This document shows, one piece after another, positions 1,371-3,499 of a stretch of 64,000 nt of DNA. Under the pieces are notes generated by a model, which searched no databases, was not told the DNA's origin, and saw only the letters and a list, made by a program, of their open reading frames with translations. How positions within the stretch are numbered: position 1 is the first letter of the stretch; each line of letters starts with the position of its first letter. Source of the DNA: an uncultured Desulfatitalea sp. (GTDB lineage: Bacteria; Desulfobacterota; Desulfobacteria; Desulfobacterales; Desulfosarcinaceae); assembly GCA_937868765.1 (NCBI GenBank), contig CALMNL010000008.1, positions 62,001 through 126,000 of the forward strand, in the 5' to 3' direction. The position numbers were made by a program, and so were the translations under genes.

Positions 1371-1386
1371 TGGCACCGCCATTGCT
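1371..1386 (+). promoter_or_regulatory. sigma54 (RpoN) promoter upstream of the c-di-GMP riboswitch
   Basis: TGGCAC (1371-1376), five bases, then TTGCT (1382-1386). This matches the -24/-12 consensus, with the key GG and GC exactly 10 bases apart. Transcription would start near 1396-1398, just before the riboswitch aptamer. Sigma54 promoters need an activator of the NtrC type; no such activator is encoded nearby and I could not identify its enhancer site. Confidence 0.7.
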
Positions 1387-1400
1387 ATAACTGGAGTCGG

Positions 1401-1486
1401 CACTATGCCAGAAAACGCCAAACTTCGGGTAACCGAAGGACGGAAAGCTTCGGGTCCACAGATGTGGATAGCCGGGTTGCCTGGAT
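1401..1486 (+). ncRNA. Class I c-di-GMP riboswitch (GEMM) aptamer
   Basis: The GEMM core is visible in order. There is a CGCCAAAC junction (1416-1423) and a P2 hairpin CTTCGG-GTAA-CCGAAG with a GNRA tetraloop (1423-1438). Next comes the conserved GGACGGAAAGC, then a GGGTCCACAGATGTGGA arm, and finally the diagnostic ATAGCCGGGTTGCC (1469-1482). A short closing stem can form between CCAG (1408-1411) and CTGG (1481-1484). Class I GEMM aptamers bind c-di-GMP, and a subset (GEMM-Ib) binds cGAMP; I cannot settle ligand choice by eye. The element lies between a sigma54 promoter and a terminator, and the gene downstream makes c-di-GMP, which argues for a feedback switch. Confidence 0.8.
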
Positions 1487-1500
1487 GATGAGACCATAAA

Positions 1501-1535
1501 AACCGGGTTGCCTGGCGGGCAATCCGGTTTTTTTA
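1501..1535 (+). terminator. Riboswitch expression platform: intrinsic terminator
   Basis: A 12-bp stem (AACCGGGTTGCC with GGCAATCCGGTT, one G-U pair, loop TGGCG) followed by a T tract (1529-1534). The 5' arm repeats 13 bases of the aptamer's 3' edge (CCGGGTTGCCTGG at 1472-1484 and 1503-1515). The 3' arm could therefore pair with either copy, which offers a simple way for ligand binding to change termination. Confidence 0.8.
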
Positions 1536-1609
1536 TGGCAGCCGGCGGCCGGCTTGGGGTGAAGTCCGCCGCGAGGGGCAAGGGGCAGAGGGGTTGTTCG
1601 AATGGGGGT

Positions 1610-1644
1610 CCCCCGCCTTTGGCAGGCAAGGCCAAGGGCGGGGG
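1610..1644 (+). other. GC-rich hairpin in the diguanylate cyclase leader
   Basis: CCCCCGCCTTTGG (1610-1622) can pair with CCAAGGGCGGGGG (1632-1644), 13 bp with one G-U, loop of 9. It has no T tract, so it is not a standard terminator. It lies 38 bp before the chosen start codon of the cyclase and could affect translation or RNA stability. Confidence 0.4.
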
Positions 1645-1681
1645 GCGACCCCGGCAAGGGTTCCAACGGAAGAGGATGGCG

Positions 1682-3499
1682 ATGAACAGGGCTTGTAAGG
1701 AAAACGGGTTATCGTTGAAAGCGCCGTTGTCCTTGTTATCGATGACAGACTTGATTCCCCTGGCCGATCCGCAGCAATGCCGTTCGGCTTTGGCCGAAGT
1801 GAACACCATCGAAGGACGGGAGCGGTTGTTGACTTGGGTTGTTCAGTTGATCCAGGGGCTTCGCTCGATGGATCTTCCCCGAGTGCTGTCGGCCGGGGAT
1901 CTGATTCGGCTCAACGACCTGGAAAAGGAGATGGAGGGCCACCAGTTGCGGCTGGAAGCGGCCCGAAACGACCGGATTTCAGATTTGATCAGGGATAATA
2001 AGCGGTTGCAATTGGAGGTGCTCGAGCGTGATCTGGTGGAAGAACAGGTGTCGCGCAAATCCAAATTGCTGGAAGCCATCAACCAGGTGCTCAACCAGAT
2101 GGTGGCCGACCGCGGGGAGCACTATCTGGCAACCACCTGTCTGGGGGCTGCGTGTGAATTGACCGGTAGCCCCTCTGGTTTCATCGTTGAAAACCAGGAA
2201 GGCATCTGGCGTCTCCTGGCCGTCGCATCCGATATCAGTGAATCGGCCGGCGCCAAAACCGACGGGTCTTCCGTTTTTCCCATGAACAATTTCTGGCGGG
2301 AGGTGACGCAGACCGGGGAGACCCGGGCATTTGCCGCTCCGGGGGCTCACCCGCTCTGGCAGCCGTTGCCCGACGGTTATCCCGAGATTCGGACCCTGCT
2401 GGCCGTGTCCTTGCCCGGCAAGGCGGGCGTATCGGGGTTCATTGCCCTGGCCAATAACCCCCGGGGCTATGCGTTCATCGATCAAGCCGATGTGGAAACC
2501 CTGGCGCTCTCATTCGTGGAGGCGCTGCAGCGCAAGCGCGCCGAACAAGCCAAACAGATCAGCGAGCGGCGGCTGAATCTGGCGCTGGATTCCGCCGAGG
2601 AGGGATTGTGGGACTATATGGTTCAAGACGAAGAGATCTTTTTCAGTCCCCGCTGGTTCACCCTGCTGGGCTTCCAGGCAGGTGAATTCCCCTATAGTTT
2701 TGAAACCTGGGTCGCGTTGACCCATCCGGACGATGTGGCGCTGCTGAAGAACACCATCCATACGGCGACTCGCGGCGACGAAGAGGCTTTCAAGATTGAA
2801 ATCCGGATGCTGTCCCAGGAAGGCCAGTGGCGCTGGATTCAAGTGCGGGGGCGCGCAGTGGAACGCAACGTCCGGGGAGAGGCCCTGCGGCTGGTGGGGA
2901 CGTTGATCGATTTCAGCCCTTACAAGCATGTGGAGACGGCGCTCCAAAAGGCCAACGAGGAGCTGCAGCGCCTGGCGGCCCTGGACGATCTGACCCAGAT
3001 CGCCAACCGCCGGCGGTTCGATGAACGCTTGAACGACGAGTGGTGTCGGGCCCGGCGCGACGGTCTGCCCCTGGGAATCATCATCGCCGACATCGATTAT
3101 TTCAAGGCCTACAACGATACCTATGGTCATGTACGCGGCGACGAAATTCTGTATGCCGTGGCCCAGTCCATCAGCGCCACCCTGAAACGGCCCATGGACA
3201 TGGTGGCCCGTTACGGCGGCGAGGAATTCGCCATCCTGCTGCCGAATACCGATCTGCCAGGCGCGGCCCAGGTGGCCCAAGAGATCCACAAGGCCATAGA
3301 GGCCCTGCAGGTCAAGCACCGCGCCTCCCCGGTGGACGGCCATGTCACCTTGAGTATGGGCGTGGCCGCGCGGGTTCCCCGGGGCGAGAGAAGTCCCATA
3401 GCCATGGTGGAAAGCGCCGACCAGGCACTCTACAAGGCCAAGGCCCAGGGACGCAACCGGATCGTCATGGCGGGGATGGAAGAAAACATCTGCTGTTAG
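1682..3499 (+). CDS. Diguanylate cyclase with GAF and PAS sensor domains
   Basis: 605 residues from the chosen start. It makes c-di-GMP from two GTP. Order: a short helical region, a GAF-like domain (about 115-275), a PAS/PAC domain (about 300-415), then a GGDEF domain (about 430-600). The active-site motif is RYGGEEF and the inhibitory I-site RPMD lies five residues before it, so product inhibition is expected. No membrane segment is seen. Signature GGDEF pieces IADIDYFKAYNDTYGH and SADQALYKAKAQGRNR are intact. The frame is open from 1508, but that region is the terminator and leader; ATG at 1682 follows GGAAGAGG at good spacing, and ATG 1742 is an alternative. It is preceded by a c-di-GMP riboswitch. 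Its stop codon overlaps that of the convergent LysE gene. Confidence 0.93.
   Translation: MNRACKENGLSLKAPLSLLSMTDLIPLADPQQCRSALAEVNTIEGRERLLTWVVQLIQGLRSMDLPRVLSAGDLIRLNDLEKEMEGHQLRLEAARNDRISDLIRDNKRLQLEVLERDLVEEQVSRKSKLLEAINQVLNQMVADRGEHYLATTCLGAACELTGSPSGFIVENQEGIWRLLAVASDISESAGAKTDGSSVFPMNNFWREVTQTGETRAFAAPGAHPLWQPLPDGYPEIRTLLAVSLPGKAGVSGFIALANNPRGYAFIDQADVETLALSFVEALQRKRAEQAKQISERRLNLALDSAEEGLWDYMVQDEEIFFSPRWFTLLGFQAGEFPYSFETWVALTHPDDVALLKNTIHTATRGDEEAFKIEIRMLSQEGQWRWIQVRGRAVERNVRGEALRLVGTLIDFSPYKHVETALQKANEELQRLAALDDLTQIANRRRFDERLNDEWCRARRDGLPLGIIIADIDYFKAYNDTYGHVRGDEILYAVAQSISATLKRPMDMVARYGGEEFAILLPNTDLPGAAQVAQEIHKAIEALQVKHRASPVDGHVTLSMGVAARVPRGERSPIAMVESADQALYKAKAQGRNRIVMAGMEENICC

What the first reader, a model, noticed from the sequence alone, without database searches (positions are those of the whole stretch)
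1371..3499. Sigma54 promoter, c-di-GMP riboswitch and terminator in front of a diguanylate cyclase
A consensus -24/-12 element (TGGCAC-N5-TTGCT) is followed within about 15 bp by a GEMM class I aptamer, an intrinsic terminator and then a GGDEF enzyme with an intact active site and I-site. The product of the enzyme would thus be the ligand of its own leader RNA, under activator-dependent transcription. GEMM switches often lie upstream of c-di-GMP targets; pairing with sigma54 and a cyclase with its own product-inhibition site gives three layers of control. The sequence elements are seen directly; the feedback logic is inference.
Basis: partly seen in the sequence, partly recalled or inferred. 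Interest (0 to 1): 0.72.

Follow-up and report, generated by a model that had tools for sequence, protein, structure and literature searches.

The report
c-di-GMP-sensing leader before c-di-GMP-making enzyme
In a sulfate-reducing bacterium, the gene for an enzyme that makes the signal molecule cyclic di-GMP sits behind a sigma-54-type promoter and an RNA sensor for that same signal, an arrangement conserved in its close relatives that probably lets the product switch off its own maker.

Summary
Window 1371-1386 is a consensus -24/-12 element. A class I c-di-GMP aptamer follows at 1408-1485 (RF03167 65.6 bits; RF01051 65.1, gathering 35), then an intrinsic terminator (1498-1534) and a GAF-PAS-GGDEF cyclase (1682-3499) with GGEEF and I-site RPMD. 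It is not chance. The cyclase has an ortholog in 11 of 11 genomes searched of its genus (Desulfatitalea-like, inferred). All 11 leaders keep the aptamer, the terminator and a -24/-12-like element 18-27 nt before the aptamer (8 strict). Aptamer bases (G20, A47, C92) and enzyme (Asp, not the Hypr Ser) both point to c-di-GMP. The terminator's 5' arm copies 13 nt of the aptamer's 3' strand and can pair with it. Modelling favours this antiterminator in 9 of 11 orthologs without ligand, and a ligand bonus removes it. I predict an OFF switch (negative feedback); covariation does not support the pairing and nothing is tested at the bench. The sigma-54/GEMM pairing is wider: strict sites precede all 4 aptamers over cut-off in this genome, 14 of 89 others examined in the order and 7 of 27 elsewhere in the phylum, against 0 of 60 control riboswitches. 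Nine literature searches found no report of it. New variant of a known kind.

The parts
1371..1386 (+). sigma-54-type -24/-12 element TGGCACCGCCATTGCT (GG-N10-GC)
   Evidence: a like element at the same place in 11 of 11 genus orthologs, 8 of them strict TGGCAY-N5-TTGC
1397..1397 (+). predicted transcription start (12 nt after the C of the -12 element)
   Evidence: inference from sigma-54 promoter geometry (recalled); not mapped
1408..1485 (+). c-di-GMP-I (GEMM-I) aptamer, G20/A47/C92, with flipped C21-G46 pair and short P3
   Evidence: RF03167 65.6 bits; RF01051 65.1 bits; positions 20, 21, 46, 47; position numbers recalled
1471..1484 (+). aptamer 3' strand (copy 1), which can also pair with 1503-1516 as antiterminator
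1503..1516 (+). terminator 5' arm (copy 2); shares the 13 nt CCGGGTTGCCTGG with copy 1
1498..1534 (+). intrinsic terminator hairpin and U tract (1528-1534)
   Evidence: -22.3 kcal/mol; a like hairpin and U tract in 11 of 11 genus orthologs; not listed by the simple scan
1600..1665 (+). G+C-rich hairpin in the 5' UTR, role unknown
   Evidence: fold; a single copy in the genome by pattern; a like hairpin seen by eye in G150 and G152
1682..3499 (+). diguanylate cyclase, 605 aa, GAF_2-PAS_3-GGDEF; A-site GGEEF 3215-3229, I-site RPMD 3188-3199; no PocR domain, which the relatives G126, G029 and L237 carry

Best explanation
This is the 5' leader of a diguanylate cyclase mRNA. RNA polymerase with sigma-54, opened by an unidentified enhancer-binding protein, starts at about 1397. 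The first RNA made is a c-di-GMP-I aptamer. When c-di-GMP is low, the aptamer's 3' strand (1471-1484) is free to pair with the terminator's 5' arm (1503-1516) as soon as that arm is made; this antiterminator lets polymerase read on into the cyclase. When c-di-GMP is high, the ligand-bound aptamer holds its own 3' strand, the copy in the terminator is free, the terminator forms, and the cyclase is not made. The product thus limits its maker at transcription, in addition to product inhibition at the I-site. Shown here: the sequence elements, their conservation, and the mutually exclusive pairings on paper. Inferred: RpoN use, ligand, sign and feedback.
For: Elements. Conservation: cyclase ortholog in 14 of 30 genomes searched in the family, namely 11 of 11 of the genus and 3 of 3 of a second genus; aptamer upstream in 13 of 13 orthologs whose upstream DNA is held; -24/-12-like element 18-27 nt before the aptamer in 11 of 11 genus orthologs, 8 of 11 strict; terminator in 11 of 11. 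In L237/G153 and G126 start codons lie about 29 and 73 nt behind the U tract, which leaves little room for another promoter; in the window the distance is about 148 nt, and no sigma-70-like site was found on the + strand of 1160-1800. Ligand: G20 and A47 in 13 of 13; canonical Asp in the GGDEF, aligned with WspR. Switch: the antiterminator becomes the minimum-energy fold once arm 2 is made in window, G126 and L237; 133 of 143 pair cells kept in 11 orthologs, 16-55% in slid registers; inner-helix probability 0.83-0.98 without ligand in 9 of 11, lost in all nine or largely lost (G126, 0.34) at a ligand bonus of 12 kcal/mol; tails shuffled 2000 times reach the observed stability in 44 (window), 16 (G126) and 221 (L237).
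Against: Covariation of the antiterminator is no better than shuffled columns (211 of 500 reach it), and the aptamer itself constrains one strand. The slid-register control favours a structure taken from the window. Two of 11 orthologs (G146, G149) do not form the antiterminator in the model, and in G149 the forced aptamer is not populated either; in G126 and G148 a bonus of 8 kcal/mol barely moves the antiterminator (0.97, 0.90). Forced-structure energies put the aptamer ahead in 4 of 11 (G154, G147, G146, G151). L237/G153 is weak against shuffles. At full length, aptamer plus terminator is already 2.2 kcal/mol better than the antiterminator in the window, so the model needs kinetic control. 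G146 and G151 have GA instead of GC at -12, and G149 has one mismatch in the -24 block. In the sister genus (G029, G170) the candidate sigma-54 site has TTGT and lies 157-170 nt upstream, and the platform is a different hairpin without a U tract. No experiment.
Confidence: 0.64

Rival explanations
1. The terminator is essentially constitutive: the sigma-54 promoter makes an abundant short aptamer RNA that soaks up c-di-GMP, as proposed for merRNA of Bdellovibrio, and the cyclase is made from occasional read-through.
For: The terminator has its own complete pair of arms outside the aptamer; antiterminator covariation is weak; at full length aptamer plus terminator is slightly favoured in the window. 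merRNA precedent: PMC3627812 (passages read).
Against: merRNA had no conserved downstream reading frame, whereas here the same gene follows in all 11 genus orthologs; the 13-nt copy of the aptamer strand in the terminator arm is hard to explain without switching.
Confidence: 0.16
2. It is an ON switch: c-di-GMP raises cyclase expression (positive feedback).
For: ON geometry exists in other sigma-54/GEMM leaders: in L176 and L193 the aptamer 3' strand is itself the terminator 5' arm.
Against: Here ligand binding leaves the terminator's arms free; I found no pairing by which the bound aptamer would block the terminator.
Confidence: 0.1
3. The ligand is 3',3'-cGAMP or another dinucleotide, not c-di-GMP.
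For: The best Rfam hit is a named variant family (RF03167), the C21-G46 pair is inverted relative to most GEMM aptamers, and cGAMP riboswitches occur in Geobacter (PMC6456294, passages).
Against: G20, A47 and C92 are kept; 13 of 13 orthologs have G20 and A47. PMC10333796 (passage) names G20, together with other nucleotides, as decisive for c-di-GMP. The enzyme has the canonical Asp. 0 half-flips of pair 21-46 among 80 loci suggest an ordinary compensated pair.
Confidence: 0.07
4. The -24/-12 match is incidental and another promoter drives the leader.
For: One such site is not rare in 64 kb (12 of 100 shuffles); 2 of 11 orthologs have a weak -12.
Against: The site is kept at near-constant distance in 11 of 11 genus orthologs; 18 of 93 GEMM aptamers examined in the order (14 of 89 without this genome) have strict sites against 0.055 expected from shuffles and 0 of 60 TPP and cobalamin riboswitches.
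Confidence: 0.05

Closest known systems
c-di-GMP-I (GEMM-I) riboswitch, RF01051
   Same: Fold, core bases G20/A47/C92 and place in a 5' leader; score 65.1 bits, gathering 35
   Different: C21-G46 instead of the usual G21-C46 (of 93 aptamers in the order set 79 read G-C, 7 C-G, 3 other, 4 were not read by the script), short P3; [quoted passage not shown] From memory, Sudarsan et al. 2008 already list GEMM RNAs before cyclase and phosphodiesterase genes; that paper was not held
c-di-GMP-I-GGC variant, RF03167
   Same: Highest-scoring Rfam family (65.6, gathering 59); short P3
   Different: Its consensus has G where the canonical class has A47; the window has A
Cd1 c-di-GMP riboswitch before flgB of Clostridioides difficile
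   Same: An 'off' riboswitch: transcription of the downstream genes at low c-di-GMP (PMC6366702, passage)
   Different: Other target and other organism; sequence not compared here
Geobacter GEMM-Ib riboswitches with the Hypr cyclase GacA
   Same: Cyclic dinucleotide riboswitches and a GGDEF enzyme in one circuit (PMC6456294, passages)
   Different: cGAMP signature absent in both RNA and enzyme; GacA acts on riboswitch regulons elsewhere in the genome, and its own gene being under such a switch was not seen in the passages read
merRNA of Bdellovibrio
   Same: c-di-GMP aptamer in a non-coding transcript (PMC3627812, passages)
   Different: No conserved reading frame downstream of merRNA; here the same cyclase follows in all genus orthologs examined

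Membership tests
c-di-GMP-I riboswitch (RF01051) | covariance-model score over the gathering score | tested here: met
   65.1 bits against 35
c-di-GMP-I riboswitch (RF01051) | ligand-contacting bases G20, A47, C92 | tested here: met
   20 and 47 by script in 13 of 13 orthologs; C92 read by eye; numbering recalled, its use for the Rfam variant names inferred from the consensus lines
c-di-GMP-I riboswitch (RF01051) | binds c-di-GMP | not testable with these tools
   needs in-line probing
c-di-GMP-I-GGC (RF03167) | score over gathering score | tested here: met
   65.6 against 59; 8 of the other 12 orthologs score below 59 or fit RF03168 better
c-di-GMP-I-GGC (RF03167) | G at position 47 (consensus GACGCGAA) | tested here: not met
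   window reads GACGGAAA: G46 paired to C21, A47
cGAMP riboswitch (GEMM-Ib) | A20 (recalled) | tested here: not met
   G20 in 13 of 13
sigma-54 promoter | GG-N10-GC with TGGCAY/TTGCW context | tested here: met
   1371-1386
sigma-54 promoter | rpoN in the genome | tested here: met
   PF04552 212.3 bits at G000:C6:134177-134653
sigma-54 promoter | RpoN- and activator-dependent start | not testable with these tools
   needs transcript mapping in wild type and rpoN mutant
riboswitch-controlled intrinsic terminator | hairpin and U tract mutually exclusive with an antiterminator that uses an aptamer strand | tested here: inconclusive
   pairings exist and 93% of cells are kept; 9 of 11 switch in the model; covariation not above shuffles
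canonical diguanylate cyclase | GG[D/E]EF, Asp at the Hypr position, RxxD 5 residues before the A-site | tested here: met
   activity not tested
Hypr GGDEF (cGAMP synthase) | Ser in place of Asp (Ser348 in GmGacA, PMC6456294, passage) | tested here: not met
   FKAYND, aligned with WspR FKSYND

The most novel reading that the evidence does not exclude
Coupling of a sigma-54 promoter to a class I c-di-GMP riboswitch is a widespread two-input device, an AND gate between an enhancer-binding protein and the second messenger. It occurs throughout Thermodesulfobacteriota and in several other phyla, often commanding secreted Fn3/PKD-type surface proteins. In the Desulfatitalea-like lineage it was captured by a cyclase, where a duplicated aptamer strand in the terminator turns it into a product-repressed OFF switch.
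Probability: 0.5. Interest if true: 0.68.

Novelty: new variant of a known kind. Interest (0 to 1): 0.55.

Why it matters
c-di-GMP riboswitches usually sit on output genes; one on a cyclase closes a loop within the signal's own circuit, and the sign of that loop can be tested directly with a short RNA in vitro. The wider pattern, strict sigma-54 sites before a good share of GEMM aptamers and before none of 60 control riboswitches, predicts which c-di-GMP outputs of sulfate reducers and relatives also need a specific activator. That is a testable wiring rule for biofilm and surface-protein control in bacteria that are hard to manipulate.

Tried and rejected
Considered and set aside: cGAMP as ligand (RNA and enzyme signatures absent); membership in the GGC variant (A47 present); an ON switch for this leader (no pairing found); the 5'-UTR hairpin 1600-1665 as a dispersed repeat (a single copy by pattern).

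Led nowhere or weak: covariation test of the antiterminator (not above shuffles); search for a shared enhancer site upstream of the -24 element (no convincing conserved block across genera, by eye); the first sigma-54 scan of the order loci, which read minus-strand loci in the wrong direction and was replaced; the first version of the terminator-overlap script (its motif window missed most aptamers; replaced, whose single-stem rule still labels several orthologs OVERLAP because it picks the longer antiterminator-like fold); the simple terminator scan (no + strand terminator listed, probably because its stem runs into the U tract). GGDEF counts downstream of other GEMM aptamers are lower bounds: many loci hold only 1.5-2.6 kb downstream, and the window's own locus was missed for that reason in the order set.
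Full report
OBSERVATION. The window holds, in order on the + strand, a sigma-54-type element TGGCACCGCCATTGCT (1371-1386), a class I c-di-GMP aptamer (1408-1485), an intrinsic terminator (1498-1534) and a cyclase gene (1682-3499). Rfam's best family is RF03167 c-di-GMP-I-GGC at 65.6 bits (gathering 59); the parent family RF01051 scores 65.1 (gathering 35). The terminator hairpin folds at -22.3 kcal/mol and runs into seven U; the simple scan missed it. The protein is GAF_2-PAS_3-GGDEF with GGEEF and an I-site RPMD five residues before it. 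Its best-matching solved relatives include WspR-type cyclases.

IS IT CHANCE? A single consensus -24/-12 site in 64 kb would not be remarkable (12 of 100 shuffles hold at least one). The leader as a unit is conserved. The N-terminal 430 residues of the cyclase find an ortholog (E of at most 1e-35) in 14 of 30 genomes of the family: 11 of 11 of the window's genus, 3 of 3 of a second genus, 0 of 16 others. The aptamer stands upstream in 13 of 13 orthologs whose upstream DNA is held; the fourteenth (L285) begins inside the gene. Eight of these 13 fall below the gathering score of their best family (42.8 to 57.8 bits), but all have E of at most 5.3e-6. In the 11 genus orthologs a -24/-12-like element lies 18-27 nt before the aptamer. 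It is strict TGGCAY-N5-TTGC in 8; G146 and G151 have TTGA at -12, and G149 has TGGCG at -24. A terminator of the type ACCGGGTTGC...GCAATCCGGTTTTTTT is kept in all 11 with few changes, while the linker before it is not conserved. In the second genus (G029, G170) the aptamer has a long P3 loop, the -24/-12-like site is TGGCATCAAAATTGTA 157-170 nt upstream, and a different hairpin without a U tract stands near the start codon.

ORGANISM. Contigs of congeners have the same lengths as named records: G147:C148 (112,398) equals DHGT01000035.1, Desulfatitalea sp. UBA4791, and G153:C31 (94,768) equals JAKALP010000021.1. I therefore infer a Desulfatitalea-like member of Desulfosarcinaceae, Thermodesulfobacteriota (lineage).

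LIGAND. In the numbering of the V. cholerae aptamer (recalled), the leader has G20, A47 and C92. The Rfam variant names fit the bases at 20, 47 and 92 (U-A-U and G-G-C consensus lines; my inference), so the window is of the canonical G-A-C kind although RF03167 scores highest. G20 and A47 hold in 13 of 13 orthologs. PMC10333796 (passage) states that G20, with other nucleotides, favours c-di-GMP over cAMP-GMP. The enzyme has the canonical Asp where cGAMP-making Hypr enzymes have Ser (PMC6456294, passage; alignment). RNA and enzyme thus agree on c-di-GMP. Pair 21-46 is inverted to C-G. In 80 sigma-54/GEMM loci 27 have both sides inverted and none only one, so it is a compensated pair; inverted aptamers go with terminators (18 of 27 against 7 of 53 by one script; 20 of 27 against 10 of 53 by another).

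MECHANISM. The terminator's 5' arm (1503-1516) contains a 13-nt copy of the aptamer's 3' strand, and the two copies are nearly complementary to each other. Folding growing transcripts, the aptamer-side folds give way to a hairpin between the two copies once the second is made, in window, G126 and L237. That hairpin takes both the aptamer's strand and the terminator's arm, so it is an antiterminator. At the decision point, before the terminator's 3' arm is made, its inner helix has probability 0.83-0.98 in 9 of 11 orthologs and 0.001 or less in G146 and G149 (in G149 the aptamer is not populated either). Giving the aptamer a ligand bonus of 4, 8 or 12 kcal/mol removes it; in the window 0.98, 0.73, 0.004, 0. 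G126 and G148 resist until 12 kcal/mol (0.34 and 0.04 left). Hence bound aptamer, free arm, terminator: an OFF switch. Limits: the energies are for equilibrium, the bonus is arbitrary, the 13 pairs are kept in 133 of 143 cells but covary no more than shuffled columns, and shuffled tails match the stability in 44, 16 and 221 of 2000. Forced-structure energies at the decision point favour the antiterminator in 7 of 11, with the aptamer ahead by 2.0 to 2.1 kcal/mol in G154, G147 and G146 and by 7.1 in G151. At full length, aptamer plus terminator and antiterminator are within 2.2 kcal/mol in 6 of 11, with the antiterminator ahead by 5.3 to 8.8 in G148, G126 and G149 and behind by 8.3 and 12.5 in G151 and G146. 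The model thus relies on kinetics that I could not compute.

THE WIDER PATTERN. All four GEMM aptamers over the RF01051 cut-off in this genome have a strict TGGCAY-N5-TTGC site upstream (22-46 nt before the aptamer). A fifth, sub-threshold aptamer lacking its 3' half has one too. The genome has 62 such sites in 5.36 Mb; the pattern read backwards gives 7. In the order, 99 of 146 genomes have GEMM hits over the cut-off; the match list was cut. I examined 93 aptamers: the top of that list down to E 1.1e-13, less three further tandem copies in loci already taken, plus two lower-scoring ones of this genome. Of these 18 have a strict site within 250 nt upstream, or 14 of 89 without this genome. Shuffles expect 0.055 of 93; the reverse strand of the same stretches gives 0, the downstream 250 nt gives 0, and the rest of those loci gives 0 in 488,622 strand-bases. 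By my own sequence sorting the sites fall on aptamers of the GGC-UAA type (13 of 37) and the inverted type (4 of 8), hardly on the GGU-UAA type (1 of 47), and not on one unsorted (Fisher p 1e-5). Controls: TPP 0 of 30, cobalamin 0 of 30. 18 of 93 against 0 of 60 gives p 1.3e-4, 14 of 89 gives 8e-4, without correction for relatedness. In a phylum-wide sample, 7 of 27 aptamers outside the order whose loci were returned have strict sites, one of them 232 nt away. These were selected for the site and give no frequency. Downstream reading frames were called by script in 72 of the 80 listed loci; I chose 50 of them by eye, leaving out frames that looked spurious. Of the 50, 23 match Fn3 and several PKD, Ig-like, lectin or PEP-CTERM domains; 1 is a GGDEF. 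So the pairing is general and the cyclase is the exception. Sigma-54-bearing aptamers of the order set rarely have terminators (3 of 18 against 40 of 75; by the second script 5 of 17 against 34 of 72, 15 of the latter unread), so this leader is also unusual in its platform.

LITERATURE. Nine searches of the held open library gave no paper that, from listings and passages, reports a sigma-54 promoter paired with a c-di-GMP-I riboswitch; searches list only 20 of 35, 54 and 35 papers. I read passages only, of eight papers. [quoted passage not shown] PMC12316311 reports that Desulfobacteria have the largest numbers of sigma-54 activators. Subscription journals are mostly absent, so absence here is weak. 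From memory, Sudarsan et al. 2008 already place GEMM RNAs before cyclase genes; the paper was not held.

VERDICT. A real, conserved regulatory leader; ligand and wiring well supported by sequence; sign predicted; function untested. The cyclase case is a new variant of a known kind, and the sigma-54/GEMM pairing is the more general and more interesting result.

Noticed in passing
L005 (G000:C6:475145-475242, minus strand): A fifth GEMM aptamer that has lost its 3' half (31.7 bits) but keeps a strict -24/-12 site about 35 nt upstream.
   Followed up: partly
window 1682-2000 against L043, L237, L044: The window's cyclase lacks the PocR sensory domain that its relatives G126, L237 and G029 carry in front of GAF-PAS-GGDEF.
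   Followed up: partly
L043:3258-4160 (minus): In the sister species G126 a sigma-54 activator (Sigma54_activat + HTH_8) lies convergently right behind the cyclase, a candidate activator of the leader; in the window a LysE-type gene lies there.
   Followed up: no
L176, L193: Sigma-54/GEMM leaders in which the aptamer 3' strand is itself the terminator's 5' arm, the geometry of an ON switch; comparison with the cyclase leaders suggests that copying one strand could invert the sign.
   Followed up: partly
L170, L173, L194, L203, L207, L211, L223, L232, L239: Terminator 5' arms with CCCGTGG, complementary to the aptamer's CCACGGG strand: a second recurrent way of tying the terminator to the aptamer (read by eye).
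   Followed up: no
window 1600-1665: Strong G+C-rich hairpin between terminator and cyclase start, with a like hairpin in G150 and G152, not a dispersed repeat by pattern.
   Followed up: partly
L127: Three GEMM-clan aptamers in tandem within about 330 nt, scoring best to RF03168 and RF03167.
   Followed up: no
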